Source: Cymbidium sinense
Lineage: Eukaryota; Streptophyta; Magnoliopsida; Asparagales; Orchidaceae
Assembly (NCBI GenBank): GCA_021442155.1
Contig: CM038215.1
Coordinates: 6,534,976-6,598,975 of the forward strand
Length of the DNA stretch: 64,000 bases
Reading direction: 5' to 3'
Within the stretch, counting starts at the first letter, position 1, and the number at the start of each line of letters is the position of its first letter. The position numbers were made by a program, and so were the translations under genes. The notes beneath the pieces were generated by a model. The model ran no database searches and had not been told where the DNA came from. It was given only the letters and a program-made list of their open reading frames with translations. Shown piece after piece: positions 2,578 to 42,667 of the stretch.

Positions 2578-2684
2578 GCACCACCACTGTGATAACTTCT
2601 ACCTCCACCTTCGCCTCCACCGCTAGATGTAGATTGAGCTTAATTGATGGTGATGTTCCTTACATCAAGGTTCTACACATTCTT
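2578..2684 (-). pseudogene. GRP fragment A (5' part only)
   Basis: Minus strand reads AAGAATG... and translates to NLDVRNITIN, stop, AQS, then a glycine-rich start with GGGEGGG. This matches the end of the RRM and start of the glycine tail of plant glycine-rich RNA-binding proteins (GRP7/8-like; the family normally reads NITVNEAQSR here). Only about 107 bp remain. It differs at four positions from 2855-2961 in fragment B, and the flanking telomere-like bases also match, so A and B are a young tandem duplication with a 277-bp offset. The array polarity flips at its left edge. Confidence 0.8.
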
Positions 2685-2740
2685 AGGGTTTAGGTTTAGG
2701 TTTAGGTTTATTAGGTTCTACAATTTAGGTTCTCATGTTG
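2685..2740 (-). repeat. Short TTTAGGG/TTTAGG spacer between GRP fragments A and B
   Basis: The plus strand carries AGGGTTTAGGTTTAGG and ends in a degenerate stretch. Its first about 36 bases are the same as those to the right of fragment B (from 2962), which supports the tandem duplication of the A/B segment. Confidence 0.75.
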
Positions 2741-2961
2741 TGGCATCCACCATCATATCCTCGATCTCTCCCTCTACCACCACCATGACTGTAACCTCCA
2801 TAACCACCACTGCTCCAACAACCTCCTCTATATCCACTAGCTCATCCAAATAGCGCACCACCACTGTGATAACTTCTACCTCCACCTTTGCCTCCACCGC
2901 CAGATCTAGATTGAGCTTAATTGATGGTGATGTTCCTTACGTCAAGGTTCTACACATTCTT
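2741..2961 (-). pseudogene. GRP fragment B
   Basis: Minus-strand remnant of a glycine-rich RNA-binding protein gene. It runs from AAGAATG (2961) through the NITIN/AQSRS part of the RRM end and the glycine-rich tail to GGATATGATGGTGGATGCC near 2741, where the C-terminal SRYSRG part and the 3'UTR are missing. In other copies this point continues as YDGGSRYSRG. Its 5' half is duplicated as fragment A. It is not a gene: there are stops in the RRM end and the tail is truncated. Confidence 0.8.
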
Positions 2962-3780
2962 AGGGTTTAGGTTTAGGTTTAGGTTTATTAGGTTCTAGAG
3001 TTAGGTTTTTTTATTAAATTTTATTAGTTACTAAGGTTTAGGTTTAGGGTTTGGAGTTTAGGGTTTTAGGGTTTAGGGTTTAGTGTTTAGGGTTTAGGAT
3101 TTAAGGTTTAGAGTTTATGCTTTAGTGTTTTAGGGTTTATAATTTTAAGGTTTAGGATTAGGCATATTAATAGAGTGTGTTTTTTTAGGGTTTAGTATTT
3201 TTTAGGTTAGGGTTATTTTAATTTTTTTAAATTTCTTTAATTTTTAATTTTTTTAGAATTAAGTAAAATTATAGGTTTAGGTTTATTTGGTTTATTTCTT
3301 ATTTTTATTTAGGTTTATTTTATTTTTATTTAGTTTATTTATTTAATTTATTATTTTAGTTTATTTTTTTAGGTTTAGTTATGTTTAGTTTAGTTTTATT
3401 TTATTTATTTTAGGTTTACATTTGGTTTATTTATTTTGTTTAGGTTAGGTTTTATCTTCTTTTTAAGTTTGAGGTTTTAATTTTGGATTTTTAGGTTTTT
3501 AGTTTAGGTTTAGGTTTGGGTTTATGTTTATGTTTTAAGGTTTTATTTTATTTTATTTTTTTATTTTACTTAGTTTAGGTTTAGGTTTTACATTTTTAGA
3601 GTTTAAGGATTAGGGTTTAGAGTTTAGGGTTTGGGTTTTAAGATTATAGGTTTTAGGATTTAAGGGTTTGGGGTTTAGGGTTAGGGATTTTTTTATTTTT
3701 TTATTTTTAGGGTTTAGGGTTTAAGGTTTAGGTTTTAGGTTTAGGTTTAGGTTTTAATTTAAAGTTTATGATTTTTAGTT
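2962..3780 (-). repeat. Degenerate telomere-like array, TTTAGGG strand
   Basis: Plus strand is TTTAGGG, TTTAGG and TTTATTTTA variants, the reverse of the array at 1931-2577. A minus-strand form of the array mark (ATAATTTTACTTAATTC) lies at about 3241-3275. Clean heptamers occur at 3035-3150 and 3595-3740. Confidence 0.9.
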
Positions 3781-4223
3781 TTTTTAATAGAGAATAAATT
3801 CAGATTTAACATTTCTTCTTTTCGATTTCATCAACCAAGTATCACACCAAGTTTTTTAAGACACAAGTAATGACAGATAAAAAATGAGCACGCATAGAGA
3901 AAATCAAAAATCCTAGATAATTATAACCATCTCTAGTGTAAAGACACAATTCCATATGCAGTAGATCTAATCGGTCATTCTTTAGTTTCTCCATTTCCCA
4001 TCGAAACTACCGTGGCCTCTCGAGTAGCGGGATCCACCATTATATCCCTGATCTCACCCTCCGTCACCACCACGGATGTACCCTCCATCGTGCCTCCCGC
4101 ATCCATAACCACCGGCTCACCACTCACACATCCCCACCACCAGTGATAACCACCACCACCACCTTCGCTCCACCGCTAGATCTAGTCAGGTCGACTGATA
4201 TGTTTGATGTCTTGCCCATTCTT
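3781..4223 (-). pseudogene. GRP fragment C with 3'UTR
   Basis: Nearly full-length fragment on the minus strand. It starts at AAGAATGGGC (4223), passes a damaged RRM end and a glycine-rich tail, and reaches GYNGGSRYSRGHGSFDGKWRN followed by a stop near 3998. The C-terminal SRYSRG and WRN plus stop are typical of plant GRP tails. After the stop comes the shared 3'UTR: CTCTATGCGTGCTCATTTTT, GACACAAG on the other strand, then AAGAAGAAATGTTAAATC and a short A-run. Telomere-like repeats resume directly after the A-run. Confidence 0.85.
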
Positions 4224-5861
4224 AGGGTATAGGTTTAGGTTTATTAAGTTTTAGGGTTTTGGTTTTTTTAATTTATTTAGTTAATTTAGGTTTAGGATTA
4301 GGGTTTTGGGTTTAGGATTTAAGGTTTAGGGTTTAGGTTTAGGGTGAGTTTTAGGGTTTATACATTTAGGGTTTACATTTAGGGTTTAGCATTCAAGGTT
4401 TAAGGTTTTATAGGGGAAGGGTTGTGGTATGATTTAGTTTTATGGTTTAGGTTAGTTGGGTTTAGGTATAGGGTTTTTTTTCAATTTTTTTGAATTATGT
4501 AAACTTATAAGTTTAGGTTTATATTTTTTTTATTTATATTCATTTTTTTAATTTTATTTGGTTTATTTTATTTTTATTTAGTTTAGTTTATTTATTTTAG
4601 GTTTATTTACTTTAGTTTAGATTTTTATTTTAGTTTATTTTTAGGATTAGATTTAGCTTTAGGTTTACTTTAGTTTAGTTTTTTTTATTTTTTTATTTTT
4701 TAGGTTTAGGCTTTATTTTTTATTTTTAGGTTTAGGTTTAGGTTTTTATTTTATGTTTTTATGTTTAAGTTTTTGGTTTTTATTTTAGGTTTATTTTTAG
4801 GTTTAGGTTTATTTTTAGTTTATTTTATTTATTTAGTTTATGTTTAAGTTTAGGCTTAGTTTATTTTAGGTTTAGGTTTAGGTTTTATTTATTTTAGTTT
4901 AGTTAATTTTAGTTTTGATTTAGGTTTAAGTTTTCTTTGTTTAGGGTTTCATTATTTTAAGTTTTATTTTGGTTTAATTTTAGGTTTAGTTTTATTTAGT
5001 TTTAATTTTATTTTATTTTAGGTTTATTTTATTTTATTTTAGGTTTAGTTTATATTTTTTAGGTTTTTTTATTTTTTAGTTTAGTTTAGGTAATTTAATT
5101 CATTTTAGTTTAGTTTTATGTTTATTTTATTTCTTTTTGGTTTAGGTTTAAGTTTACATTTAGGTATAGGTTTTAGTTTATGTTTTTATTTTATTTTATT
5201 TTTTTTATTTTATTTTGGTTTAAGTTTTTTTTACTTGTTTTATTTTTAGGTTATATTTAGTTTAGGTTTAGGTTTTTAAGTTTTTGGTTTATGATTTATG
5301 GTAAGGTACAGGGTGGTAGGTTCAGGGTTCTGATTTCTTGGGTTTTGTTTGGGTTTTGGGTTTTGGGTTTAGGGTTTAGTCAAGCTTTGGGTTTAGGATT
5401 TAGGATATAGGGTTGTAGGTTTAGGGTTATAAATGGTTTAGAGATTTTATTTAATTTTTACTTTTTTAATTTTTTTATTTTTTAATTAAAACTAGTAGGT
5501 TTAGGTTTATTTTATTTATTTCCAGATTATAATTTATTTTATTTATTATTATTTTGGTTTTTTTTTATTTTATTATGTTTTTATATATTTTATTTTATTA
5601 TATTTTAGGTTCATTTTATTTTTATTTTAGGTTTAATTTTATTTTATTTTGGTTTTAATTTTTAGTTTAGTTTAGTTTATTTATTTTATTTTGTTTAGTT
5701 ATTATTTTATATTTTATTTTTATTTTAGGTTTAGGTTTAGATTTAGGTTTAGGTTTTAGTTTATGTTTTTATTTTATTTTATTTTTAGGTTTTGTTTAGT
5801 TTAGGTCTACGTTTTTAGCTTTTTAGGGTTTATGGTTTAGGGTTAGTTTAGGGTTTTTTTT
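4224..5861 (-). repeat. Degenerate telomere-like array, TTTAGGG strand
   Basis: Clean TTTAGGG blocks at about 4224-4420 and 5290-5450 alternate with AT-rich TTTAGG/TTTATTTTA parts. Minus-strand copies of the array mark lie at about 4471-4515 (AAGTTTACATAATTC) and 5461-5500 (CTAGTTTTAATT). This is the same unit structure as in the plus-oriented arrays, but inverted. Confidence 0.9.
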
Positions 5862-5976
5862 AGGAAAATTAGGTAATTTTTTATTGTCACAAGGAAAAAG
5901 TACAAAGTCCTTAGAGGGGGTAAATCTCTAAGATAATGCTCAAAGTGCTACAATAAATCCTGAAGAGATAAACCCC
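5862..5976. other. Unassigned 115-bp segment beside an RTE fragment
   Basis: Non-telomeric sequence (AAGGAAAAAGTACAAAGTCC, then GAGGGGGTAAATCTC) that I could not match to anything else in the window. It sits where the array changes from TTTAGGG to CCCTAAA polarity. It could be unrelated filler captured at a repair junction or a decayed part of the adjoining RTE element. Confidence 0.4.
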
Positions 5977-6112: not shown

Positions 6113-9100
6113 TAAACTGAAATAAATAAACCTAAAATGAATAAACTAAACTAAATAAAAATAAAAAAAATAAATCAAAATAAAAATAAAATAAACTAAA
6201 ATAAATAAAAAATAAACAAAATAAACCTAAACCTCCACTTGACTTAATTTAAAAAAATTAAAAAAAAATAAATATAATAAAAAATGCTAAACCCTAAACC
6301 CTAAACCATAAACCCTAAACCCTAAAACCTACAACCCCAAACCTTAAACCCTAAACCCCAAAACCTAAACCTTAAACCCTAAACCCTAAAAACTTAAAAA
6401 CCTAAACCTAAATTAAGTAAAACTTCAAAATAAAATAAATAAAAAAACCTAAACCTAAATAAAATTATATAAAATAAAAACCAGAACTAAAACCTAAACC
6501 TAACCTAAAACCTAAACCTAAAACTAAAACTAAAATAAAATTAAAAAATGAAAAAATAAACAAAAATAAAATAAATAAAAACCTAAACTAAACTAAAAAA
6601 TAAAATAAACAAAAAAAAACTTAAATAAAACCAAAACTAAACGAAAAATAATAAAAAAATAAACCTAAAAAAATAAAACAAAAACTAAATAAAAACCTAA
6701 AACTAAAATATAAACTTAAAATAAATAAAAAATAAATCCAAAACCTTAAAAATAAAAAAGAAACACCTAAATTTAAAATAAATAAAATTAAAAAAACCTA
6801 AACCTAAAATAAAATAAATAAAATCTAAACCTAAAACTAAACTAAACTAAACTAAAACCCTAAAATAAACAAACAAAATAAACTAAAAAAACCTAAACAT
6901 AAACTAAAAAATAAAACTAAAATAAAATCCTAAAACCAAAACCTAAAAAATAAAACCTAAACCTAAAAAATAAAATAAAAACAGAACGAAACTAAAAAAT
7001 AAACACAATCCTAAACTTAAACCTAAAAAAATAAACTAAAATAAAAAAGCCTAAACTAAAATAAACAAACCTGAAATAAACTAAATAAAAAAACCTAAAT
7101 AAAATAATAAGATAAACTAAAATAAATAAAATAAATTAAATAAACAAAAAACCTAACCTGCTATAATTAAAATAAAAACCTAAACCTTAAACCCTAAACT
7201 AAACCTAAATACTAAACCTAAACCAGATACTTAAACCCTAAATGTAAACTAGAACTAAACTAAATCCTAAACCATAAACCATAAATAACCTAAATCCTAA
7301 ACAAATGCTAAACCTAAACCCTAAACCTAAACCTAAACCACCCTAACCTAACTAAGCTCTAAACTTAAACCTAAACTCAAACCCTAAACTACTAAACCTA
7401 AACTATAAACTAAACCCTAAACCCTAACCCTAAACACTAAACCATAAAACCCTAACCCCTAAACTAACCCTAAACCCTAAGCTAAAGCTAAACCCTAAAC
7501 CCTAATTCCAAAACACTAAACCATAAACTTTAAACCCTAAACCCTAACCCTAAACACTAAACCATAAAACCCTAAACCCTAAAACCCTAAACCCTAAACC
7601 CTAAACCCCAAACCCTAAAAACCTAAAAACCAAAACCTAAAGTAAATAAAACCTAAAAATAAAATAAATAAAAAACCCAAACTAAATAAAATAGAAAAAT
7701 AAAATAAAAACCTAAACTTTAAAAAAAACTAAAATAAAATAAATAAAAACCTAAACTAAACTAAAAAAATAAAATAAACATAAGATTAAAAAACAAAAAT
7801 AAAATAAAAACTAATTGTAAAATGAAAAATAAAATAAACCCAAAATAAAATAAAATAAAAATTAAATCAAAAATAAAACCTCAAAAATAAACCTAAAAAT
7901 AAATTGAAATTAAAACCCAAACTCTAAACTAAAATGAAAAACTAAACTAAAATTAAAAATAAAATAAACCTAACCCTAAACTAAAATAAATAAAACCTAA
8001 ATCTAAACCTAAAATAAACTAAACCTAAACCCTAAACTAAATAAAATAAAATATACTAAAAATAAACCTAAACCTAAACTAAAAAATAAAATCTAAAAAT
8101 AAACCTAAAACCTAAACCCTAAGCCCTAAACCATAAACGCTAAAATGCTAAAAACCTAAACCTAAACTAAATACAACCTAAAAATAAAATAAATAAATAA
8201 AACTGAACAAAAAAAGAAAACTAAATGATGAATAAAAATAAAGTAAACATAAAATAAAATAAAATAAAATCTAAATAAAAACCATAACCTAAAATGTAAA
8301 TCTAAACATAAAACTTAAAAATAAATAAAAAATAAAGCCTAAACCTTAAACTAGAAAAAAAACCTAAACCTAAAATAAGCAAAATAAATTAATCCTAAAC
8401 CTAAACTAAAATAAATAAAACCTAAACCTAAAATAAACCAAAAATAATCCTAAGCCTAAACTAAAAAATAAAACCTAAAATAAAAACCTAAAGCTAAAAA
8501 AATTAATTAAAAACCTCAACCTGAACCTAAAATAAAAAATAAAACCTAAACCCAAAAAATAAAATAAAAATAAAACTAAACTAAAAAATAAACATAAACC
8601 TAAACTTAAAAAATAAACTAAAATAAAATACCTAATCTAAAATAAATAATCATAAAATAAAAAATAAACTTAAATAAAAAATAAACTAAAATAAAAAAAA
8701 AAAAAAAAAATCTAAACATATCAGTTTACCTTATTTAAAAAAAAACTTTAAAACTAAGCATAAACCCTAAACCAAAAATAACCTAATAAACCCTAACCTA
8801 AACTAAATACCCTAAACTTAAACCTAAGAAACCATAAACTATAAACCCTAAACCCTAATCCATAAACCTAAAACCTAAATAAAATCCTAACAACTATAAA
8901 CCTAAATAAACCTAACTAAACCTAAACCTAAAACTAAACCTAACCTAAAACCCTAAACTAAGCCCTAAACTCAAACCCTAAACACTAAATAAACCTAAAC
9001 CCTAAACTAAACTAAACCAACCTAAACCCTAATAAACCTAAACCTAAACCCAAAACCTAAAACCTAAAACCTAAACCTAAATTAAAACACTAAACTCTAA

Positions 9101-11620
9101 ACCATAAACCTAAACCCTAACCTACACTAAATAAAACCCTAAAACCTTAACCTTAATCCCTAAACACTAAACCCTAAACTCTAAAAACCAAAAAACCTAA
9201 ACCCAAAAGTAAATAAAACCTAAACATAAATAAATAAAAAAACCTAAACTTAAACAAATTAAAAAAAAATAAATAAAATAAAATCCTAAACTAAAACTTA
9301 AACATAAACTTAAAATAAAATAAAATAAAAAATAAAAATAAAGTAATAAAATAAATAAAAACCTAAACTAAACTAAAAAATAAAATAATCTGAAGAATAG
9401 AAAACCTAAATAAAATAAAAACTAAACATAAAATAAAAATAAAATAAACCTAAAATAAAATAAAATATAAACTAAATAAAAACCTGAACCTAAAAAATAA
9501 ACTTAAAAATAAAACCATAAAATAAATAAAAAATAAAACCCAAACCCTAAATGAAAAAGAAACTAAACATAAAATAAAAATAAAATAAACAAAATAAAAT
9601 AAACTTAAACTTAAACTAAATTAAACTAAACTAGAATAAATAAAACTTAAACCTAAACCTAAAATAAACTAAACTTAAACCTAAAATAAACTAAACCTAA
9701 ACCCTAAACTAAATAAAATAAAATAAACTAACGATAAACCTAAACCTAAACTAAAAAATAAAACTTAAGAATAAACCTAAAATGAAATATTAAAACCTAA
9801 ACCCTAAAAAGCTAAAAACCTTAACCTAAACTAAAAAAACCTAAACATAAAATAAATAAAAAAATATAAACAAAAATAAATTGAAAGATAAATAAAAAAA
9901 TAAAACTAAAATAAAATAAAATAAAAACTAAATAAAACCTAAACTTAAAATATAATCCTAAAATAATACATAAAAAAATAAATAAAAAAATAAAACTTAA
10001 ACATTAAACTAAAATAACCAAAACTTAAATAAACAAAATAAAATAAACCTAAACCTAAACTAAAATAAATAAAACCTAAACCTGCAATAAACTATACCTA
10101 AACCCGAAACTAAATAAAATCAAATAAACTAAAAATAAACTTAAACATAAACTAAAAAATAAAACCTTAAAATAAACCTAAAATAATAACTTAAAACCTA
10201 AACCTAAAACAATAAAATGAAAACCTAAACCTAAACCTAAAAATAAAAAATAAAACTTAAACCTAAAAAATCAAATAAAACTTAAACTAAACTGAAAAAT
10301 AAGCCTAAACTTAAACCTAAACATAATAAATAAATAAAAATAAAAATCCTAAACAAAAATTAATAAACCAAAAATAAACAGAATAAAAATAAAAAATAAA
10401 CCTAAATAAAAATGAAATAAATAAAATAAACTAAAATAAATAAAAATAAACTAAATAAATTAGAGAAAGACCTAAACCTGTTGGTTTACCTAATTTTAAA
10501 AAAAAACCATAAACCTTAAACCCTAAACCCTAAACCCTAAATCCTAAACCCTAAACCCTAAAACTAAGCCTAAACATTAAACCGTAAACTAACAACCCTA
10601 AACCATAAACCCTAAATAATAATAAATCCATAACCTTAAACCCTAAACCCTAAATTAACCCTAAACCCTAAACCTTAAACCTTAAACCCTAAATCCTAAA
10701 CCATAAATCCTAACCCCAACTAAACCCTAAACCCTAAACCCTAAACCCTAAACCATAACCCTAAACCATAAACCCTAAACCCTAAACTAACCCTAAACCC
10801 TAATAACCCTAAATAAAGCCTAAACCTAAACTAATCCTAAACCTAAACCCTAAACCTAAACCATAAGAAACCATAAAATCATAACCAAAACTAAACATTA
10901 AAGCCTAAACACTAACCCTAAACCCTAAACCCTAAACCCTATCCCTAAACACTAAACCATAAAACCTTCTAAAACTCTAAAACCCTAAACCTTGAACCCT
11001 AAACCTTAAACCCCAAACCCTAAACAACCTAAAAACCTAAATCAAAAGTAAATAAAACTTAAAAATAAAATAAAGAAAAAACTTAAACTAACTAAAATAA
11101 AAAATAAAATAAAATAAAAACCTACACTATAACCTAAACCTAAAAATAAATAGATTAAAAAAATAAAATTAAACATAAATAAAATAAATAAAAACCTAAA
11201 CTATACTAAAAATAAAATAAACCTAATAATAAAAAACCTAAATAAAATAAACACTAAACATAAAATAAAATTAATATAAACATAAAATAAACCTAAAATA
11301 ATAACTAAATAAAAACCTAAACCTAAAAAAAAATAAAAAATAAAACTCAAACCCTAAACTAAAAAGAAAAACTAAACCTAAAATAAAAATAAAATAAATA
11401 GAATAAAATAAACATAAACCTAAATTAAAAGAAACTACTAAAATAAATAAAAACCTAAACCTAAACCTAAAATAAACTAAACCTAAATGCTAAAGTAAAC
11501 AAAATAAAATAAACTAAAAATAAACCTAAGCCTAAACTAAAAAATAAAACCTAAAAATAAACTAAATAAAAAAAAACTAAATAAAAATAAAATGATAACT
11601 AAATGAAAAAAAATAAAGTT
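6113..11620 (+). repeat. Telomere-derived satellite array, CCCTAAA strand
   Basis: 5.5 kb nearly free of G on the plus strand. CCCTAAA-rich blocks (about 6287-6395, 7180-7625, 8750-9195, 10505-11045) alternate with longer AT-rich blocks built from CCTAAA, CTAAAATAAA and AATAAA words. Three AT-rich blocks end in the array mark: 7152-7175 (weak), 8717-8745 and 10478-10508, each followed by an A-run and fresh CCCTAAA. The words within AT-rich blocks recur in the same order: CCTAAATAAAATAAAAAC-like phrases at about 9408 and 11228 are followed by the same neighbours. This supports amplified units of about 1.5-1.8 kb rather than simple decay. There is no GRP piece in this section. Confidence 0.9.
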
Positions 11621-12733
11621 AACAATAACAACAACAACAACAATAAGCCTTTATCCCACTTAGTGGGGTCAGCTACATGAATCCTTTGTCTCCATCGTGC
11701 CCTACTATGTGTCAAATTCTCATTTAATTCAAGCATACTAAGGTCATTTTTTATACACCTTAACCAAGTCTTTTTAGGTCTACCTCTACCTTTCTTAATA
11801 TAAGGAAAATCTAATGCATCTACTCAAAATCATAACATTTTATGTTGCCAAACCATCTAAACTCTTTTAATCTTACCGCCATTGAGCTACTAATTTTTTC
11901 CTAACATACTCATTTTGCATTTTATCTTTAAGAGTAAAGCCACTCATCCACCTGAGCATCCTCATCTCTGTAACACTTAACTTAGTCTTATGCTTCTTTT
12001 TTACTAGCCAACATTCTGCACCATACATCATTGTAGGTCTTACCACAATCTTATAAAATTTTCCTTTAAGTTTAAGTGGAACTTTTCAACCACACAACAA
12101 GCCAGATGCATTCCTCCACTTCAACCATCCAACTTGAATTCTACTAATAACATCTCCATCTATTTCACCACCATTTTGAACAATAGCCTAAATATAATCG
12201 CTCTTATTAATGACTTGTTCACCTAATGTCACAACACTACCACTAGAACTTCTACAACTAAAATTACACTCCATATATTCAGTTTTAGATCTACTTAAAT
12301 GAAAACCTTTAGACTCTAATGTTGACCTCCATAAGTCAAGTTTCTCTTGGACTCCATCTCTAGTCTTATCAACAAGAAGAGTGTCATAATACAAAAAGCA
12401 TACACCAAGGTACATCTTCTTGTAAATACTTAATAAGAACATCCATAACTAAAGCAAAATGATAAGTGCTTAAAGCTGATCCTTGATGAAATCCAATTGA
12501 AATAGGAAAATATTTTATCAATCCTCCTTGTGTAAAACAAGTACTCTATTATACATATCCTTAATGACTTGAATATAACCAATATTAACTACTCTTTCTA
12601 GAACTCTCCAAAGAACATCTTTTGAAACTTTATCATAAAAAACCAATAATATAGATCCTCCCTTTTCTATACTCCATCAAACCTCTTAACCAATGTATAG
12701 CATCCATAGTTGATCTACTTGGCATGAAACCAA
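11621..12733 (-). mobile_element. RTE-type non-LTR retrotransposon, 5'-truncated (copy 1)
   Basis: The 3' end is at the left: an (AAC)n tail at 11621-11643 followed by CCCACTTAGTGGGGTCAGCT, the conserved 3' end of plant RTE elements. On the minus strand the RT C-terminal half reads LDLWRSTLESKGFHLSRSKT and EYMECNFSCRSSS, typical of the RTE/BovB clade. The polymerase box, normally FADD, reads YYDT. The 5' end stops at the GFMPxRST-like motif at 12733, where AAACCAAAAACCCTAAA could have served as a microhomology. There are many frameshifts, so this is an old dead copy within the array. Confidence 0.88.
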
Positions 12734-13680
12734 AAACCCTAAAAACCCTAAACTCTAAAGCCTAAGCACTAAACCCTAAGCCCTAAACCGTAAACCCAAA
12801 CCCAAACCCAAAACCCTAAACCCTAAAATGCTAAACCCTAAAACCTAAACCCTAAACCTTAAACACTAAACCCTAAATTCTAAACCCTAAAAACCTTAAC
12901 CTAAACTAAAAAGACCTAAAAATAAAATAAATAAAAAATCTAAAACTAAATAAAATAAAATAAAAACTTAAATTAAAACCTAAACTTAAAAATAAAATAA
13001 AATAAACAAATAAAAATAAATATAAATAAAATAAATAAAACCTAAATAAACTTAAAATAAAATAAACTTAAGAATAAAACCTAAATAAAAACTAAAAAAA
13101 ATAAAATAAAATAAAACTATAAAAAAATAAAATTAAATCTAAATATAAACTTAAACTTAAAACATAAACCTTAAAATAAAACCTAAAAAAATAAATAAAA
13201 AAATAAAACCTAAACCCTAAACCTAAAAAAAAAAATAAAAAATAAAATAAAAAATAAAATAAACCTAAACCTACTAAAATAAACTAAACTAAAGTTAATA
13301 AACCTAAACCTAATCTTAAAATAAACTAAACCTTAACAAAAAACCTAAACTAAATAAAATAAAATAAACTAAAAATAAAACTAAACCTAAACTAAAATAA
13401 AAAAAACTAAAATCAAAACCTAAAACTTAAACCTAAAAAATAAAATAAAAGCCTAAACCTAAATCTAAAAATAAAAAATAAAATAAAAATAAAACTTAAT
13501 TAAAAATTAAACGTAAACCTAGTCCTAAACTAAAAAAATAAACTAAAATAAATAAACCTAAAATAAATAAATTAAAATAAATAAAATTAAAAAAATAGAT
13601 CTAAATAAAAATAAAAATAAAAAAGTAGAATAAATAAAACCATAAACCCTAAAACCATAAACCCTAAATTAAACCTACAA
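12734..13680 (+). repeat. Telomere-derived satellite array between two RTE copies
   Basis: CCCTAAA-rich at 12734-12900, then AT-rich unit words up to about 13640 and a few CCCTAAA words before the next RTE tail. It is about one unit long and shows the usual internal order; the array mark itself is not visible here. Confidence 0.85.
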
Positions 13681-25330: not shown

Positions 25331-25379
25331 GGTCGACAACTTGATAGGTTGGATATAAAGCATCTTAGATATGCCAACC

Positions 25380-31716: not shown

Positions 31717-33200
31717 CCAAAACCCTAAACCATAAACCAAAACTCAAACCCTAACCTAAAAAACATAAACCCTAAACCCTAAACCCTAAACCCTAAACCC
31801 TAAACCCTAAAACCTACAACCCTAAACCTTAAACCCTAAACCCTAAACCCTAAACCTAAACTAAATAATACCTAAAATTTAAATAAATAAAAAACCTAAA
31901 CCTAAAAAAACTAAAATAAAAATAAAATAAAAACTTAAACTAAAACCTAAGCCTAAACATAAAATAAAAATAAAAACTAAATTAAAATAAAATAAATAAA
32001 AACCTAAACTAAACTAAAAAAATAAAATAAACCAAAAAATAAATAAAAATAAAACCAAAACCCTAAACCTAAAATAAATAAAATAAAATAAACATAAACC
32101 TAAACTAAAATAAACTAAAATAAAATAAATAAAACCTAAACCTAAACCTAAGATAAAAATATAAACTCTAAACTAAATAAAATAAAAACTAAAATAAACC
32201 TAAACCTAAACTAAAAAAAACCTAAAACCTAAAATAAAAACTAAAACATAAACCTAAAAAATAAATAAAAAAACCTAAACCTAACTAAAAAAAAAATAAA
32301 ACCTAAACCTATAAAATAAAATAAAAATAAACTAAATAAAAAATAAGTTAAACTAAACCTAAACCTAAAAAAATAAAAAAAAATAAAAAACCTAAACTAA
32401 AATAAATAAATAATAAAAAATAAAAAAAATAAACCTAAATAAAATAAATAAAATAAACTAAACTAAAAAATAAACTAAATAAATAATAAACCTAAACCTA
32501 CTGTACTTAATTAAAAAAAAAACAATAAACTAAACCCTAAACCTAAACCAAACCTTAAACCTAAAATTAACCCTAAACCTAAACCTAAATAAACCTTAAA
32601 CTAAACCCTAAACCAAAATCCTAAACCCTAAACTTAAACCTAAAACCCTAAACTAAACTTAAACCAAAACTTAAAAAACCTAAAACCTGTCTAAACCTTA
32701 AAACCTAAACCTAAAACCCTAAAGTAAAATACTAAACCTAAATTAAACTAACTAAGCAACCTAAACCTAAACTAAACCCTAAAATAAAACTAAAGTTTAA
32801 AGCTAAACCTAACCTAATATAAACCTTAAACCTAAAACCTATACTTATAAATAAAAAACCAAAACCCAAAAAACCAAAAAACCTAAACCTAAAAAATAAA
32901 ATAAAAATAAATACTCTAATAAATAAAATATAAAAAATAAAGTAAATTAAAAACCTAAACTAAAACCTAAACCTAAACCTGAAAATAAAATAAAATAATA
33001 AAAATGAACTAATATAAAATAAATAGAAACCTAAACTAAATTAAATAATAAAATAAACCTAATAATAAAAAACCTACATAGATTAAAAAACTAAGCATAA
33101 AATAAAAATAAAATAAACCTAAAATAAAATAAAATAAAAACAAAATAAACCTAAACCTAAAAAAATAAACATAAAACTTAAAATAAATAAAATAAATAAA
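31717..33200 (+). repeat. Telomere-derived satellite array
   Basis: CCCTAAA block 31725-31855, AT-rich body 31860-32497, array mark 32498-32522 (CTGTACTTAATT plus A-run), a second less clean CCCTAAA block 32523-32850, and another AT-rich body to 33200 that runs directly into GRP fragment G. Confidence 0.9.
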
Positions 33201-33589
33201 AGGTGGTTATCACAATGGTGGTGGGGCTGAGGTGATGGTGGATATGGAGGTGGTGGTAAAGTGGTTATGAAAGAGAGCATTTAGGTTACAACTGTTGCGG
33301 TGGCAGAGGAAAAGATCGGGGATATGATGGTGGATCTTGCAACTCGAGAAGTCGCGGTGTTTCTGATGGGAACTAGAGAAATGAAAGATCAGCTGATTCA
33401 ATCTACTACTTATGAAACTATCTTCACAGTAGAGATGGTTCTAGTTATCTAGGGTTTTTGATTTGCTCTCTGCGTGCTCATTTATGATTTATGTCGTCGC
33501 TTGTGTCTTAGAAAACTTTATGTGTTCTTGGTTGGTGAAATTGAAAAGATGAAATGTTGAATCTAAATTGATTCTCTGTTAAGAAAAAA
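33201..33589 (+). pseudogene. GRP fragment G with 3'UTR
   Basis: Starts inside the glycine tail (GGTGGTTATCACAATGG), so unlike the other copies it lacks the RRM end and joins AT-rich rather than CCCTAAA sequence. The tail contains GYDGGSCNSRSRGVSDGN and a stop in place of tryptophan. The 3'UTR is well kept: TTCACAGTAGAGATGGTTCT, TTTTGATTTGCTCTCTGCGT, GTCGTCGCTTGTGTCTTAG and AAATGTTGAATCTAAATTG, ending CTCTGTTAAG plus A-run. Confidence 0.85.
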
Positions 33590-36500
33590 CCAAAAAACCT
33601 AAACAAAAAATTGAACATTAAACCTAAAACCTAAACCCTAAATATTAAACCCTAAAACTTAAATACCCTAAAATCTAAACTCTAAACCCTAAACCTTAAA
33701 ACCCTAAACCCTAAAACCTAAACCCTAAACCCTAAACCTGAAATCCTAAATCCCAAAACCTAAACCTTAAACCCTAAACCCTAAACCTTAAACCCAAAAC
33801 CCAGAAACCTTAACGCTAAACCCTAGCCCCAAAAAGCTAAACCTAAACAAAATAAAATGTAAAAAATAAAATAAATGAGAAAAATTAAACTAAAATAAAA
33901 CAAAAAATAAAAAATAAAAAATAAAAACTAAAATAAAATAAAATAAATAAAACATAAACTAAACTAAAAAATAAAATAAACTTAAAAATAAAAAACCTAA
34001 ATAAAATAAAAACTACATGTAAAATAAAAATAAAATAAACGTAAAATAAAATAAAATAAAATAAAAACTAAATAAACACCTCAACCTAAAAAATAAAACC
34101 CAAAAATAAATAAAAAATAAAACTTAAACCCTAAACTGAACAAAAATCTAAACCTCAAAATAATCAAAATAAAATAAACCTACACCTAAAATTAACATAA
34201 ACTAAATCTAAACCCTAAACTAAATAAAATAAAATAAAATAAAATAAACCTAAACCTAAATTCAAAACTAAAACCAAAAAATAAATCTAAAAAAAAGCCT
34301 AAAACCTGAACCTAAAAAAATAAAATAAAAATCTAAACCTAAACCTAAGGACAAAAACCTAAACAGAAAAGAAAACTAAACTAAACTATAAAATAAACAT
34401 AAACCTAATCTGAAACCTAAAAAATAAACTAAAATAAATTAGTTAAACTAAATAAAAATAAAAAATAAACACAAATAAAAAAAAATAAAATAAACTAAAA
34501 TATATAATAAATAAACTAAATAAACTAAATAAAACTAAACCTAGTAGTTTACTTAATTTTAAAAAAACACCCTAAACCTCAAACCCTAAACTCTAAATCC
34601 TAAACCCACCTAAACCCTAAAAATCCTAATCATAAACCCAAAACCCTAAATACTTAAAAACCTAAACCTAAAGTAAATAAAACCCAAAAATAAAATAATT
34701 TAAAAAAACCTAAACTTAAACAAAATAAAACAAAATAAAATAAAATCAACACCTAAAATAAAAATGAAACCTATACCTAAAAATAAAATAAATGTAACTA
34801 AAAATAAACTAAAATAAATAAATAAAACTCAACTAAGCTAAAAAAATATAATAAAGCTAATAATAAAAATCTAAATATAGTAAAAACTAAATGTAAAATA
34901 AAAAATAAACCTAAAATAAAAGAAAATAAAAACTAAATAAAAACCTAAACCAAAAAAATAAATAAAAAAAAAAAAGCCAAACCCAAAACTAAAAATAAAA
35001 CTTAACCTAAAATAAAAATAAAATAAACAAAATAAAATAAACCTAAACCAAAACTAAGATAAACAAAACTAAAATAAATAAAACCTAAACCTAAACCCTA
35101 AATTAAATTAATTTAAATAAACTGAAAATAAACCTAAATGTAAACTAAAACATAAACCCTAAAAATAAACCTAAAATAAAAACCTAAAGCCTAAACCCTA
35201 AACCCTAAACCCTAAACCCTAAAAAAAAAAAACCTAAACTAAAAAAAAAATAAAATAAATAAAAAAAATCTAAAATAAAATAAATAAAATAAAATAAAAC
35301 TTAAACCTAAAAAAACTAAAGCCTAAAGAAGAAAATAAAATAAAAAATATTAACCAAACTAAAATAAAATAAATAAAATCCTAAACTAAATTGAAAAAAA
35401 TTAAAAACCTAACTAAAATAAAATAAAATAAACCTAAAATAAAATAAAACAAACATTAAATAAAAACCTAAACCTAAAAAATAGACATAAAAATAAATAA
35501 AAATAAAACGTAGACCCTAAACTAAAAAAAATATAAACCTAAAATAAAAATAAAATAAACTTGAACCTAAACTAAAACAAACTAAACTAAAATAAATAAA
35601 ACATAAACCTAAACCAAAAATAAACTATACCTAACATAAACTTAAACTAAATAAAATAAAATAAACTAAAAATGAACCAAAACCTAAAGTAAAAAATTTT
35701 AGCTAGAAATAAACCTCAAATAAAAACCTAAAACCTAAACTTAAAAAAATAAATTAAAAACCTAAACCTAAACCAAAAAATAAAAAATAAAACCTAATCT
35801 AAAAAATAAAATAAAAATAAAACTAAATTAAAAAATAAACCTAAATCTAAACCTTAACCTAAACATTAACCTAAAAAAAACTAAAATAAATAAACTTAAA
35901 ATAAATAGGCTAACTAAATAAAAATAAAAATAAAATAATAAAATAAACTGAAATAATAAAAAAATAAACTAATAAACCAAAACCTATCAATTTACTTAAT
36001 TTTAAAAAAAATTAAGCAGATAAAAAAATAAAATAAAAATAAAAAAAATTCCTAAACCCTAAACCCTAAAACCCTAAACCCTAAACCTTAAACCCTAAAC
36101 CTTAAACCTAAACCATAAACCCCAAAACTTAAACCTTAAATGCTAAACCCAAAATCCTAAACCCTAAAAACATAAAAACCTAAAGCTAAACTAAATAAAA
36201 CCTAAAAATAAAATAAATAAATAAGCATAAACCTAAACTAAAACTGAAACCTAAACCTAAACCTAAAAAGAAAATAAAATAAAAATTAAAAACTAAATTA
36301 AAATAAAATAAATAAAACATAAACTAAACTAAATAAAATAAATAAAATAAAATAAAAGCTAAACCTAAACTAAAGATAACATAAACCTAAAATAAAATAA
36401 AATAAAACTAAATAAAAGCTAAACCTAAAATAAACCTAAAATAAATAAAAAAGAAAACCTAAACTCTAAACTTAAGGAAAAAACTAAACCTAAAATAAAA

Positions 36501-38118
36501 AATAAAATAAACCTAAACCAAAACTAAAATAAACTAAACTAAAATAAATAAAACCAAAACCTAAAATAAACTAAACCTAGACCTAAACGTAAACCAAAAC
36601 TAAATAAAATAAAATAAACTAAAAAATGAACCTGAACCTAGACTGGAAAATAATACCTAAAAATAAAATTATATAATAAAAACCTAAACCTAAACCTAAA
36701 AAATAAAATAAAAAAAACTAAACCTAAACCTAAACCTAAAAATTAAACTAAAATAAATAAACCCAAAATAAATAAATTAAACTAAATATAAAAAATAAAA
36801 CTAAGTAAAAACAAAAAAATTAAACTAAAAAAAGAAACTAAATAAACTTAACCTACCAATTTATTTAATTCAAAGAAAAATTTAAAAAAAAAACCTTAAC
36901 CCTGAACCCTGAAATCAAAACCCTAAACCCTAAAACCCTAAATCATAAACTCTAAACCCTAAACCCTAATCCTAAACCTTAAAACCATAAACTCTAAACC
37001 CTAGACCCTAAACCTTAAACAAGCCCTAAACCCTAAGCAAACCGTAAACCCTAAACCCTAAACCCTAAACCCTAAAATTTAAATCCTAAATCCTAAAAAC
37101 CCTAAACCAGAAAGCCTAAACACTAAACCCTAAACCCTAAACCCTAAAACCCTAAACTCTAAACCCTAAAAACCTAAAAACCTAAATCAAAACTAAATAA
37201 AACCTAAAAATAAAATAAATAAAAAAACTAAACCTAAATAAAATAAAAAATAAAATAAAATTAAAACCTAAATTAAAACCAAAACATAAACCTAAAAATA
37301 AAATAAAATAAAATAAAAAATAAACTAAAATAAAAGAATGTAAAACCTAAGCTAAACTAAATAAAATAAAATAAACATAATATTAAAAAGACTTAATAAA
37401 ATAAAAACAAAATGTAAAATAGAAATAAAATAAACCTAAAAGAAAACAAAATAAAAACTTAAACCTAAAAAATAATCCTAAAAATAAAACTTAAAAATAA
37501 GTAAAAAATAAAACCTAAACCCTAAGATAAAAAAAAACTAAACCTAAAATAAAAATAAATAAAATAAAACCTAAACCTAAACCTAAAAAATAAAATAAAA
37601 CCTAAACCTAAACCTAAAAAATAAGCTAAACTAAAAAACCTAAACTAAAATAAATAAACTGAACAAAACAAAATAAAAACATAACAAAATAAAAAAATAA
37701 AGAAAAAGACAAAAATAAATAAATAATAAACTAAATAAACTAAACCTACATGTTTTCTTATTTTTTTTAAAGAAAAAGAAAACCCTAAATGCTAAACTTT
37801 AAAGCTAACCCTATACCATAAAGCCTACACCTACAACACTAAACCTACAACCCTCAACTCTAAACCATAAACCCTAATCCCTAAAAAATGCTAAACCCTA
37901 AACATTAAATCCTAAACCCTAACCTTAAACCCTAAACTCTAAAAGCATAAACCATAAAACCCTAAAACCTTAAACCCTAAATCCTAAACCCTAAACCTAA
38001 TCCTAAACCTTATACTTGAAACCCCAAACCATAAACCTAAACCTAAAGTAAATAAATAAATTAAAAAAATAAACATAAACCATAAAACTTAATAAATCTA
38101 AAAATAAACCTAAACATT
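33590..38118 (+). repeat. Telomere-derived satellite array, four marked units
   Basis: CCCTAAA blocks alternate with AT-rich bodies. Array marks, each followed by an A-run and CCCTAAA-type words, lie at 34541-34567 (GTAGTTTACTTAATTTT), 35984-36010 (TATCAATTTACTTAATTTT), 36852-36880 (CCAATTTATTTAATTC) and 37746-37778 (TGTTTTCTTATTTTTTTT). Spacings are about 1.44, 0.87 and 0.89 kb. The phrase CCTAAATAAAATAAAAAC and its neighbours recur in the AT-rich bodies near 34002, 34866 and 37385. Confidence 0.9.
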
Positions 38119-38577
38119 AGGAAAGGGGCAAAACCTTGATGGCAGGAACATCACCGTAAACCAAGCTCAGTCTAGATCTGCTAGTGGAGGCGAAGGCAAA
38201 GGCAGCAGTTATCAAAGTGGTGGTGAGGTATCTGGAGGTGCTGTTGGATTTGGAGGTGGTGGTTAGAGCAGTGGTCGTTACAGAGGTGGGAGGAGCGACG
38301 GTGGTAATAGTCGTGGTGGTGGTGGAGGGAGAGATCAGAGATATGATGGTGGATCCCACTACTCGAGAAGTCGGGGTCATTCTGATCGGAACTGGAGAAA
38401 CTGAAGAACTGCCAATCTGATCTGCTGCTTATGGAACTGTGTCTTTTATTTTGCTCTATGTGATCATTTTTTATTTATGTCATCATTTGTGTCTTGGAAA
38501 ACATGGCGTGTTACTTAGTTAATGAAATCAAAATGAAGAAATGTTGAATATGAATTTGTTCTATGTTAAATGAAAAA
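38119..38577 (+). pseudogene. GRP fragment H with 3'UTR (best preserved)
   Basis: From CAA at 38129 to TGA at 38402-38404 the frame encodes 91 residues with only one internal stop. It starts QNLDGRNITVNQAQSRSASG, which is the last beta-strand and end of an RRM in plant glycine-rich RNA-binding proteins (GRP7/8-like). A glycine-rich tail follows, then RYDGGSHYSRSRGHSDRNWR, Asn and stop. The single break is GGTTAGAGC, likely a former TGG. Longer open frames on both strands here are shadows. The 3'UTR runs to TTGTTCTATGTTAAATGAAA at 38577. The full gene would need about 70-80 more N-terminal residues, which are nowhere in the window. Confidence 0.9.
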
Positions 38578-41500
38578 CCCTAATCCCTAAACTATAACCT
38601 CAATCCTGGACTTAAAACCTAAACCCTCAACCCTAAACACTAAACCCTAAAAACCCTAAACCCTAAATAATAAACACTAAACCCTAAGCCCTAAAACCTA
38701 AACCCTAAACCCTAAACCCTAAACCCTAAACCCTCAACCCCAAACCCCAAACCTTAAATCCTCAACTAACATTAAACCCTAAATCCTAAAAACCTTAAAA
38801 CCTAAACCTAAACTAAATAGAACATAAAAATAAAATAAATAAAAACCTAAAAAAATAAAATAAAATAAAAACATAAACTAAAACAAAAAACTAAACCAAA
38901 ACCTAAAACAAAAATAAAATAAATAAATAAAACCTAAACTAAACTAAAAATAAATAACCTAAATAAAATAAAAACTAAACCTGAATTAAAAATAAAATAA
39001 AATGATAGTAAAATAAAAAAAAAGTTAAAAAAATCTAAACCTAAAAAATAAACCAAAAAAGTAAAACCTAAAAGTAAATTAAAAATAAAACCTAAGCCCT
39101 AAATTATTCAAAAAAGAAAAATTAAATAAAAGTAAAATTAACAAAATAAAATAAATCTAAACCTAAACTAAAATAAACTAAAACCTAAACCTAAACCTTG
39201 AAATATAATAAAATAAAATAAAATAAAAAAATTAAAAAAAAAATAAAAATTAAACCTACTAAACTAAAAAATAAAATAAACCTAAACATAAAAAAACCTA
39301 AATAAAATAAAACTAAACCTAAAATAAAAATAAAATAAAATAAAACCAAAAGAAACTAAAATAATCCTAAACCTAAAAAATTAAATAAAATAAAATAAAC
39401 CTAAACTAAACAAAAATAAACTAAACTAAAATAAATAAAACCTAAACCTAAAACTTAAATAAACTAAACCTAAACCAAAACCTAAACTAAAGAAAATAAA
39501 ATAAACTAAAACTAAATGTAAATCTAAACTAAAAAATAAAACCTAAAAATAAACCTAAAATAAAAACGTAAAAACTAAACAAAAAAATAAAAACTAAAAA
39601 CCTAAACCTAGACCTAAAAATAAAAAATTAAACTTCAACATATAAAAAAATAAAGATAAAACTAAACTAAAAAAATAAACATAATCCTAAACCCAAATTG
39701 AAAAATAAACTAAATAAAAAACTTAAACAAAAATAAATAAACCAAACTAAATAAAAAAATTTAAACCAAAAAAAAATCAAATAAACTAAAATAAATAAAC
39801 TAAATAAATTAAATAAACCTAAACATATCAGTTTACTTAATTTTTTTAAAGAAAACCTAAACCCTAAACCCTAAACCTTAATCCCAATCACAAACCCTAA
39901 ACCACCCCACCCTAAACTAACCCTAAACCTATAAACCTAAAATAAAATAAAATAAAACTCTAACCCTCCACCCTAAAACCTAAACTTGCACCCTAAACCC
40001 ACTCCCTCACCACTCCCTAAACCCTACCATAAACCTAAACCTAAACCCTAAACTAACCACTCTATGGACTAAACCACTAAACCTAAACCCCAAACCCTAA
40101 ACCCTAAGAAACCCTAAACCCTAAACCAAAACCCTAAACCTAAACCTAAAATCTAAACATAAACTAAATAAAACCTAAAATAAAATAAAAATAGAAAACC
40201 TAAACATAAATAAAATAAATTAAAACCTAAATTAAAACCTAAATCTAAATCTAAAATAAAATAAAATAAAAAAATGAAAACTAAAACTAAAATAAAGAAA
40301 AACATAAATAAATTAAAATTAAAATAAACCTAAAAATATAAAACTTAAATAAAATAAAACCTAAATGTAAAATAAAAATAAACTAAAGCTAGAATAAAAT
40401 AAAATAAAAAGCTAAACCAAAAAAATAAACCTAATACCATATAAAAAATAAAACCTAAACCCTTAACTGAAAAACATAACTTAAATAAACAACATAAAAT
40501 AAACTAAACTAAACTAAACAAAACAAAAATAAACAAAATATAAACCTAAACCCAAAATAAACTAAACCTAAACCCTAAACTAAAAATAATAAAATAAACA
40601 AAAAATAAACCTAAGCTTAAAGTAAATAATAAAACCTAAAAATAAACCTAAAATAAAAATGAAAAACCTAATCTACGAAAATAAAATAAAAACCTAAACC
40701 TAAACCTAACAATAAAAATAAAACCAAAACATAAAATAAACAAACTAAAAATAAAACAAAATTTAAAATAAACTTAAAAATAAACTAAAATAAAACCTAA
40801 ACTAAAATAAATAAACCCTAAATAAATAAACTAATAAAAAATAAAATAAAAATATATAAATAAAATAAAAGTAAAATAAATAAAATCAACTAAATACCTA
40901 GTTTACTTTTTTTTTTTAAAAAACTCTAAACCCTAGACTTCCCCCACCCTAAACCCTAAAACCCCACCCCACCCTGATCCCAAATCTTAAACCCCCTAAA
41001 CTAAACTCTACTTAAACCTCAAATCTCCTAAACTCTAAACCCTAAACCCTAAATCCTAAACCCTCCCTAACTGAGCTGACCCTAAACCTTACTAACCACC
41101 CTAAACTCAAATTAACCACCCACCACCCAAATCCTTAACCTAAACTCTACTACCCAACCCTAAACCCTAAACCTAACCTATCTCTCCTAAACACTAATCT
41201 TAAACCCTAAACCCCAAACCTGACCCTAAACCCAATCTGGACCTTCCCTAATCCTAATCTGAGCTAACATAATCCACTAAATAAACCTAAAATTAAAATA
41301 AAAAAACTAAAGCCCAAAAATAAAATAAAATAAAATAAAACCTATAAACCTAAACCTAAACTTAAAATAAAATAAAATTAAGAAAATAAAGTAAACTAAA
41401 ATAAATAAATAAAAAACTCTAAACTAAAAATAAAATAAACCTAAGAATAAAACCTAAATATAACAAACTAAACATAAAATAAAAAAGTAAAGCTAAAATA

Positions 41501-42185
41501 AAATAAAATAAAACTAAATATAAACTTAAATAAAATAAATAAATAAACCTAAACCTAAACTAAAATAAACTTAAAATAAAAATAAAACTAAATAAAATAA
41601 ACCTAAACCTAAAAAAATAAATAAAATAAAACACCTAAAATAAACTAAACTTACTAAACCTTATAAATAAAATAAAATAAACTAAAATCAAACCAAAACC
41701 TAAACTAAAAAATATAACCTAAAAATAAACCTAAAACCTAAATGTAAAAGAATAAAAAAAACCTAAACCTAAACCTAGAAAATAAAATAAAAAATAAAAC
41801 ACAACTAAAAAGTAAACCTAAACCTAAACCTAAATCTAAAATATAAACTAAAATAAGAAACCTAAACTAAAATAAATAAACTAAAATAAATATACTAAAC
41901 TTAATAAAAAAGTAAAACTTAACTAAAAATAAAAAATAAAATAAAATAAAATAAATAAAAGATAAACTAAATAAACCTAAACCTATTGATTTACATAACT
42001 TAAAAAAAACCATAAACCCTAAACATAAACCATAAACCCTAAACCTTAAACCTTAAATTGTAACACCTAAAAAACCCTAAACCCTAAACCCTAACCATAA
42101 ACCGTAAACCCTAAACCTAAACCTAAAGTAACTAAATAAATTAAAAAATAAACCTAAAGCCTAAAACATAATAAACTTAAACCCT
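38578..42185 (+). repeat. Telomere-derived satellite array, three marked units
   Basis: Array marks at 39825-39855 (TATCAGTTTACTTAATTTTT), 40897-40922 (CTAGTTTACTTTTTTTT) and 41982-42008 (CTATTGATTTACATAACTT) close AT-rich bodies, about 1.07-1.09 kb apart. The stretch 40923-41290 is unusual: CCCTAAA words mixed with CCACCC and CTCCCTAACTGAGCTGACCC, richer in C than the rest. The last CCCTAAA block runs into GRP fragment I. Confidence 0.9.
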
Positions 42186-42667
42186 AAGAATGGGCAGAAC
42201 CCTGATCGCAGGAACATCACTATCAACTAGGCTTAGTCTAGATCTAGGTGGAGAAGGTGGAGGCGGCTTATCGCATTGGTGGTGTGGGGATCCAAGGTCT
42301 TGTGGATATGGAGGTGGTTGTCGAGCGTGGTGGTTATGGAGGCAGGAAGAGTGATGGAGGTTACAACCACAGTGGTGGAGGAGGGAGAGATCGGGGATAT
42401 GATGGTGGATCTCGTTACTCAAGAGGCCTGGGTGGTTCTGATGGGAACTAGAGAAATTGAAGAACGGTCGATCCGATCTACTATTTATGGAACTGTGTCT
42501 TTACTGTAGAGACAGTTCTAGTTATCTAGGGTTTTTGATTTTCACTATGCATGCTCATTTTTTGATCTATGTCGTCGCTTGTGTCTTAAAAAAGTTGGTG
42601 TGTTACTTGGTTGATGAGATCAAAAAGAAGAAATATTGAATATAAATTTGTTCTCTGTTAAAAAAAA
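42186..42667 (+). pseudogene. GRP fragment I with 3'UTR
   Basis: Begins AAGAATGGGCAGAACCCTGA directly after ACCCT. The RRM end NGQNPDRRNITIN, stop, A, stop, SRSR is clear. After a frame change the glycine tail reads GGYGGRKSDGGYNHSGGGG, then RDRGYDGGSRYSRGLGGSD, GN, stop in place of Trp, RN and stop (about 42430-42460). The 3'UTR includes CTGTAGAGACAGTTCTAG, CTAGGGTTTTTGATTTTCAC, GTCGTCGCTTGTGTCTTA and AAGAAGAAATATTGAA, with CTCTGTTAAAAAAAA at the end. CCCTAAA words resume at once. Confidence 0.88.

What the first reader, a model, noticed from the sequence alone, without database searches (positions are those of the whole stretch)
2578..42667. A host gene 3' end (glycine-rich RNA-binding protein) is embedded nine times in the telomere-like arrays
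Fragments at 2578, 2741, 3781, 16296, 18227, 31668, 33201, 38119 and 42186 share the last RRM strand, glycine tail, SRYSRG...WRN stop, the same 3'UTR and a terminal A-run. None extends further 5'. Always the coding strand is the CCCTAAA strand. This is a gene fragment carried as a component of a telomere-derived satellite, a combination I do not know from the literature.
Basis: partly seen in the sequence, partly recalled or inferred. Interest (0 to 1): 0.88.

Follow-up and report, generated by a model that had tools for sequence, protein, structure and literature searches.

The report
Host-gene tail inside telomere-like satellite
In a large plant genome, most likely an orchid, the tail end of one ordinary gene's messenger RNA was apparently copied back into telomere-like repeat DNA and multiplied with it to more than ten thousand places, so a satellite-like repeat can carry a host gene fragment.

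Summary
Nine fragments of one glycine-rich RNA-binding protein (GRP) gene lie in degenerate CCCTAAA arrays, coding strand on the CCCTAAA strand. The genome (3.53 Gb) is most likely an orchid's. I found the intact parent gene (C13:36950260, one intron). Array copies start at one point inside its exon 2 and end at one point in the 3' UTR, where the best-preserved copies carry A7-A10 and the gene reads TGATCATT. So the founder looks like a 5'-truncated, polyadenylated retrocopy. The exact 17-base breakpoint occurs 11,478 times, the gene-type junction once. Copies also share the array around them, and at C1:4.10 Mb two composite units stand head to tail (landmark periods 1.56-1.88 kb). Copies lie on many contigs and both strands, in strand-coherent runs where tested, with a poorly resolved, star-like tree; neighbours are no more alike than distant copies: an old burst, since decayed. 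Best reading: LINE-made retrocopy, then amplification as part of a telomere-like repeat unit. How the unit spread is not settled; no function is shown. A retrogene in a macrosatellite is known (D4Z4/DUX4); my seven literature searches listed nothing like this case.

The parts
2575..2684 (-). GRP fragment: 5' piece with CCCTAA|G breakpoint near 2684; broken at 2575 (parent ~771), where the array turns to the opposite strand
   Evidence: blastn; flank strands
2745..2961 (-). GRP fragment: parent 656-900, 3' UTR missing; breakpoint near 2961
3785..4216 (-). GRP fragment with 3' UTR and A7 run; CCCTAA|G breakpoint at about 4216
16299..16726 (+). GRP fragment with breakpoint, 3' UTR and interrupted A-run
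18230..18680 (+). GRP fragment with breakpoint, 3' UTR and A7 run; upstream landmark M2 absent
31665..31713 (+). last ~45 bases of the GRP 3' UTR plus a short A-run; non-array DNA upstream
33202..33590 (+). GRP fragment, 5' shortened (parent 744), with 3' UTR and interrupted A-run
38123..38572 (+). GRP fragment, parent 657-1146, 3' UTR; A-run interrupted (AAATGAAAAA); frame 38129-38404 searched
42188..42659 (+). best-preserved GRP fragment of the window, parent 656-1146 at 83%, then A8
42125..42185 (+). upstream part of the composite unit: landmark M2 and CCCTAA; M2 is shared by 7 of the 9 copies compared
44433..44454 (+). landmark M1 (TAGTTTACTTAATTAAAAAAAA, 1 difference), mark of the composite unit; also at 32499 and 34545 (2 differences each)
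1945..2601 (+). telomere-like array, CCCTAAA strand on +
2965..5884 (-). telomere-like arrays, CCCTAAA strand on - (inverted block; holds the copy at 3785-4216)
6116..18949 (+). telomere-like arrays, interrupted by other DNA at about 11635-12731 and 13690-15350
31700..45125 (+). telomere-like arrays with the copies at 33202, 38123 and 42188

Best explanation
A single processed copy of a host GRP mRNA (3' end only, with its poly(A) tail) was reverse-transcribed, most likely by a LINE in trans, into a telomere-like CCCTAAA array. The TTTAGGG strand was the primer side, which fixes the coding strand to the CCCTAAA strand. The array unit with this insert then multiplied as a composite repeat of roughly 1.6-1.9 kb (landmark M1 - CCCTAAA - landmark M2 - GRP tail - A-run - CCCTAAA - AT-rich degenerate repeats), in one old burst, in tandem and as parts of larger duplicated blocks. 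Copies spread over many chromosomes and decayed independently. Shown: one parent gene, one 5' breakpoint, one 3' end with an A-run absent from the gene, shared flanks, a tandem unit at one locus, strand-coherent runs on the stretch tested, long outer branches. Inferred: LINE as the machine, priming on the G-rich strand, amplification by unequal exchange, circles or segmental duplication. No function is shown; a passive hitch-hiker is most likely.
For: Intact parent gene at C13:36950260 with one intron. Copies match it from 656 (inside exon 2) to 1146 of L041. Of 17 alignments that reach the 3' part, 10 end at L041:1146-1147, 5 at 1141-1142 and 2 at 1118-1119; in 7 of the 10 an A7-A10 run follows at once, where the gene reads TGATCATT; 3 more (L009 4039, window 3791, 18659) have A7-A8 after 3-5 further bases; A>=7 runs start at 115 of 18,781 array positions. 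Breakpoint 17-mer: 5832 + 5646 exact copies, reversed control 0. Of 4332 exact internal 21-mers starting at the breakpoint, 2638 (61%) follow exactly CCTAA, about what five bases would keep at ~10% decay each. Gene-type junction: 1. 17 substitutions separate at least 70% of the copies from the gene (not polarised, so some may be changes in the gene). Shared flanks: 13 of 36 upstream and 16 of 36 downstream pairs score above the 99th percentile of random array pairs. Head-to-tail units in L042: M1 at 1811 and 3434, M2 at 134, 2017 and 3581, breakpoint at 200 and 2077. Strand runs: 20 against 50.2 expected; 56 of 70 neighbours more than 20 kb apart on one strand. Segmental duplication -5372..1876 with 18675..25922 at 80%. 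LINE-like 3' ends join arrays with sense on the CCCTAAA strand at 4 of 4 loci found; in L010 a zf-RVT frame lies upstream on that strand.
Against: Target-site duplications cannot be seen in a repeat array, and the intron lies upstream of the truncation, so two classic retrocopy marks are untestable. The A-run is short, sits in A-rich surroundings, and is interrupted or short in several copies (window 38123, 33202, 16299, 31665). 23 of 36 upstream and 20 of 36 downstream flank pairs do not exceed the 99th percentile of random array pairs. What precedes the other 1694 of 4332 internal 21-mers was not read. Window copies are irregularly spaced (about 1.5-4.9 kb within a block). Only one tandem pair was read in full. 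Neighbouring copies are no more alike than others (mean 0.747, n 5, against 0.757, n 100), unlike a satellite under concerted evolution. M2 is absent in 2 of 9 copies. The strand-run statistic rests on 100 listed places in the first 6.7 Mb of one contig and could partly reflect assembly orientation. The four LINE-like ends come from loci picked for arrays or flanking the window; none was found in the 20 spaced sample loci or the 10 contig-end stretches.
Confidence: 0.7

Rival explanations
1. SVA-like composite element: the array-GRP unit is itself transcribed, ends at the GRP 3' UTR's polyadenylation site or in the A-rich array, and was spread as RNA by LINE proteins into many sites.
For: Dispersed on many contigs and both strands; short inner and long outer branches and no local homogenisation; LINE-like 3' ends with the same polarity next to arrays; in L002 the copy starts at the breakpoint right behind a LINE-like 3' end and A-run.
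Against: In part of the pairs shared sequence continues past the A-run into the array. Strand-coherent runs over more than 20 kb are not expected of random insertion. No target-site duplications or sharp outer ends of a composite were seen.
Confidence: 0.18
2. The founder was a genomic DNA piece (part of exon 2 plus 3' flank) joined into an array by break repair, not a retrocopy.
For: Intron loss cannot be tested; the A-run is short and the array is A-rich.
Against: The 3' end falls 196 bases after the stop codon, a usual place for a poly(A) site (general knowledge), and A7-A10 begins where gene and copies part in 7 of the 10 copies that end at 1146-1147.
Confidence: 0.11
3. Independent random insertions of GRP mRNA into arrays, many times.
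For: GRP mRNAs are abundant in plants (general knowledge); arrays may be a favoured target.
Against: One 5' breakpoint in thousands of exact copies, gene-type junction only once, shared flanks in part of the pairs.
Confidence: 0.01

Closest known systems
D4Z4 macrosatellite with the DUX4 retrogene (human 4q; PMC2965761, passages seen)
   Same: A retrotransposed gene copy sits in every unit of a tandem macrosatellite.
   Different: DUX4 encodes a transcription factor and D4Z4 is a subtelomeric array of chromosome 4. Here a 5'-truncated, decayed fragment lies in a telomere-like repeat dispersed at more than 10,000 places.
Interstitial telomeric-like repeats (ITR) of plants (review PMC8621592, passages seen; Cycas blocks PMC9827991, passages seen)
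   Same: Telomeric repeats and variants amplified away from chromosome ends; satellite-type amplification, including circles, has been proposed.
   Different: The passages I saw describe no host-gene fragment in the unit; 'gene fragment' has 0 occurrences in PMC8621592 and 'pseudogene' 0 in PMC9827991.
Telomere-targeted LINEs SART and TRAS of silkworm (PMC4700185, passages seen)
   Same: Non-LTR retrotransposition into telomeric repeats.
   Different: No SART/TRAS-type element was shown here; the insert is a host mRNA piece, in interstitial arrays.
SVA elements of apes (recalled, no call)
   Same: Composite of repeat array and captured pieces with a poly(A) end, moved by L1.
   Different: No composite ends, target-site duplications or transcripts shown here.

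Membership tests
Processed retrocopy (retropseudogene) | untemplated poly(A) at the 3' end | tested here: met
   10 of 17 alignments end at L041:1146-1147; 7 of these run at once into A7-A10 where the gene reads TGATCATT. The parent's poly(A) site itself was not mapped.
Processed retrocopy (retropseudogene) | loss of introns | not testable with these tools
   The only intron (L041 475-563) lies 5' of the truncation at 656.
Processed retrocopy (retropseudogene) | target-site duplication | not testable with these tools
   The target is itself a tandem repeat.
Processed retrocopy (retropseudogene) | 5' truncation and disabling changes | tested here: met
   One truncation point in exon 2; the consensus of 14 aligned copies has stops in all three frames.
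Satellite DNA | head-to-tail tandem units | tested here: met
   L042 units; among 19 neighbour distances under 10 kb, four same-strand ones of 1817, 1828, 1874 and 1877 (one opposite-strand at 1874). Window spacing is irregular.
Satellite DNA | local homogenisation (neighbours more alike) | tested here: not met
   5 neighbour pairs mean identity 0.747, 100 other pairs 0.757. In the weakly supported tree only w16/w18 of the neighbour pairs group (support 0.42).
Satellite DNA | high copy number | tested here: met
   11,478 exact breakpoints; 12,331 first-look candidates, 40 scored.
Telomere-derived repeat (ITR) | canonical CCCTAAA units away from chromosome ends | tested here: met
   314 CCCTAAA in the window, which lies at C2:6.53-6.60 Mb of a 306 Mb contig; 393,212 exact triple units genome-wide.
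SVA-like composite retrotransposon | defined outer ends with target-site duplication | tested here: inconclusive
   Shared flanks run on beyond the GRP piece in part of the pairs; no outer ends found, few full loci available.
D4Z4/DUX4-type retrogene macrosatellite | open reading frame kept in the units | tested here: not met
   5' truncated, stops in all frames of the consensus.

The most novel reading that the evidence does not exclude
The array-GRP unit is a new kind of non-autonomous mobile element of plants: a telomere-like repeat that captured a host mRNA 3' end, gained that gene's 3'-end signals, and was spread by LINE machinery to more than 10,000 sites. Its transcripts or small RNAs could act back on the parent GRP gene.
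Probability: 0.15. Interest if true: 0.88.

Novelty: new variant of a known kind. Interest (0 to 1): 0.7.

Why it matters
It is a well-marked case of a host messenger RNA piece becoming a standing part of a telomere-like repeat family. The captured gene tail gives each unit a readable tag: strand, breakpoint, divergence and neighbours can be followed, which bare CCCTAAA arrays hardly allow. That makes the origin and spread of interstitial telomeric repeats in large plant genomes datable and testable. It also puts thousands of decayed copies of one gene's 3' end into a genome, a possible source of small RNAs against that gene.

Tried and rejected
Terminal-growth model (retrocopy added at chromosome ends, arrays oriented by arm): rejected, because copies lie on both strands along the same contigs. 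Of 10 stretches read at or near contig ends, only L033 and L040 hold long arrays.

Exon-boundary capture (splice acceptor at CCCTAAG|AATGG): rejected, because the breakpoint lies inside exon 2 of the parent.

12.7 kb block 18950-31660 as an LTR element inserted in the array: no hit between its two ends by blastn.

Species as Gnetum (my guess from genome size and chromosome lengths): dropped after the parent protein's two best hits were orchids (the third is a cactus). Cymbidium is an inference: orchid hits, 3.53 Gb, about 20 large contigs; C. ensifolium is given as 3.56 Gb in a passage of PMC9539832; the C. sinense genome paper is not held. An A+T-rich satellite DNA reported from Cymbidium in the 1970s is recalled only; one search listed no such paper.

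Rfam: no match in the window. Pfam: no match for the 91-residue GRP frame. Literature: searches (listings only) showed no paper on a GRP fragment in a telomere-like satellite; the library holds only open-licence papers.

Landmark scan at loose thresholds was noisy (M2 at 5-6 differences matches generic array, and the reversed control is full of hits); only M2 with at most 2 and M1 with at most 3 differences were used.

Confidence went from 0.72 to 0.70 for the second of these; the first two rivals rose by 0.01 each.
Full report
What was checked. The window is G000:C2:6534976-6598975 of a genome of 3,525,751,733 bases in 2174 contigs; contig 2 is 306 Mb. It holds 314 CCCTAAA and 28 TTTAGGG. The array blocks lie at about 1.9-11.6, 12.8-13.7, 15.3-18.9 and 31.7-45.1 kb. 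The nine fragments are real, with the corrections given under the observation check.

The gene. The frame at 38129-38404 matches plant GRPs (7 proteins at E <= 0.1, best 6e-4, Vitis) and 16 residues at the end of the RRM of a solved GRP chain, 4c7q (E 0.34); Pfam gave nothing. Read in full (L041) it encodes MAAPDVEYRLFIGG...SRYSRGGGGSDGNWRN, exon 1 at L041 361-474, intron 475-563, stop codon ending at 950. Its best protein matches are Dendrobium chrysotoxum (94% over 51%, E 2e-74) and Phalaenopsis equestris, then a cactus and other plants, so the host is most likely an orchid; Cymbidium is my inference.

One founder, most likely a retrocopy. The consensus of 14 copies matches L041 656-1146 at 87%. 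The 5' limit is inside exon 2: the gene reads GGGGAT|GAATGGGCAG, the copies CCCTAA|GAATGGGCAG. The 3' limit is 196 bases after the stop codon: of 17 alignments reaching that part, 10 end at L041:1146-1147, 5 at 1141-1142, 2 at 1118-1119. In 7 of the 10 an A7-A10 run follows at once, in the other three an interrupted A-rich run; the gene reads TGATCATTCTG. A-runs of 7 or more start at 115 places in 18,781 array bases, so chance is unlikely but not excluded. Genome-wide the exact breakpoint AACCCTAAGAATGGGCA occurs 5832 + 5646 times, reversed control 0. The gene-type junction GGGATGAATGGGCAGAA occurs once, in the intact gene. Of 4332 exact internal 21-mers that begin at the breakpoint, 2638 have exactly CCTAA before it; the rest were not read. 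Seventeen substitutions separate at least 70% of 15 copies from the gene; without an outgroup some may have arisen in the gene. Independent insertions are very unlikely on the shared breakpoint alone.

The unit. Copies share not only the gene piece but array around it: upstream a landmark AAAGTAACTAAATAAATTAAAAAATAAAC in 7 of 9 copies compared; 13 of 36 upstream and 16 of 36 downstream pairs score above the 99th percentile of random array pairs, the others do not. A closely spaced pair picked from the breakpoint list (L042, C1:4102950-4106600) shows the unit head to tail: M1, CCCTAAA, M2, GRP tail, A-run, CCCTAAA, AT-rich degenerate repeats, M1. Landmark periods are 1564-1883 bases. Among the 99 intervals between the 100 listed places on C1, 19 are under 10 kb, four of them same-strand at 1817-1877 bases. 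Array stretches longer than two units lack a copy (6116-11635 and 33590-38113), so units with and without the tag seem to exist; whether the latter are older or have lost it is open.

How it spread. Forty scored copies lie on C1, C2, C3, C5, C6, C7, C9, C16, C18, C20 and small contigs, both strands, 87-100% identical to the query, the 100% being the query itself (12,331 candidates at first look). Of 20 stretches of 10 kb at round coordinates on C1-C10 one holds a copy. Strand is not random along the first 6.7 Mb of C1: 20 runs against 50.2 expected, and 56 of 70 neighbours more than 20 kb apart agree (p 4e-7). This favours spread by duplication of larger blocks, though assembly orientation could add to it; one such block is visible, window -5372..1876 (from L009) with 18675..25922 at 80%. 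The tree has short, weakly supported inner and long outer branches and neighbours are no more alike than other pairs (0.747 against 0.757): a burst, then independent decay. Changes from the consensus, flanks included, are richest in G>A and C>T (287 and 245 of 1288).

Strand rule. Of 19 copies, the downstream flank is CCCTAAA-type in 18 and the upstream in 17; one broken copy faces an inverted array and two have no array upstream. Reverse transcription primed from the TTTAGGG strand would give this polarity: sense-AAAA-CCCTAAA (inference). LINE-like 3' ends at four loci (window 5878, L001, L002, L010) also run towards arrays with sense on the CCCTAAA strand; the LINE label rests on a zf-RVT frame at L010 469-1080 on the same strand (E 5.5e-7), and for the other three on 75-78% similarity to that end. 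A LINE as the machine is plausible, not shown. The genome-wide count of both orientations could not be obtained (and repeats unanswered).

Known relatives. DUX4 in the D4Z4 macrosatellite is the nearest analogue of a retrocopy inside a tandem unit; plant ITRs are the nearest analogue of the array; SART/TRAS show LINE insertion into telomeric repeats. I saw passages of these papers, not the whole texts. Function: none shown; truncation, stops and decay argue against a protein product.

Noticed in passing
window 5878-5979 (-), L010 2201-2665, L001 1322-1448, L002 1-63: LINE-like 3' ends followed by A-rich sequence and CCCTAAA arrays, sense on the CCCTAAA strand at all four; in L002 the end stands directly before the GRP breakpoint. 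zf-RVT found upstream in L010 only.
   Followed up: partly
window 45130-49601: Non-array DNA with a reverse transcriptase frame (RVT_1 at 48166-48582, E 8e-11, + strand) that abuts the CCCTAAA array at about 45130 in the same polarity; the frame at 49239-49598 has no Pfam match.
   Followed up: partly
window 11635-12731 and 13690-15350: Two similar stretches inside the arrays that read like a LINE on the minus strand with TTG repeats at its 3' end (label recalled; Pfam found no family for 14057-14446). The first stops at 12731 and is followed by CCCTAAA.
   Followed up: partly
window -5372..1876 (from L009) and 18675-25922: Direct duplication of ~7.2 kb at 80% identity that starts inside an array; the 12.7 kb block 18941-31680 matches 9 of the 20 spaced sample loci at 66-82%, so it contains an abundant repeat.
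   Followed up: partly
window 49832-54332 and 61412-64440: Direct duplicate blocks of ~1.1 and ~1.9 kb at 84-86% identity outside the arrays.
   Followed up: no
arrays throughout the window: Degenerate array parts are built of A, C and T on one strand with few G (AAATAAA, CCTAAA, TAAAC), so they look grown by slippage rather than by random mutation of CCCTAAA.
   Followed up: no
L033 (C3:1-5000): The start of contig 3 is a long array of TAACTAAATAA-like repeats without CCCTAAA, turning to the opposite strand near 4879.
   Followed up: no
L001 2430-2600: GC-rich GGCCC-type sequence next to a telomere-like array.
   Followed up: no
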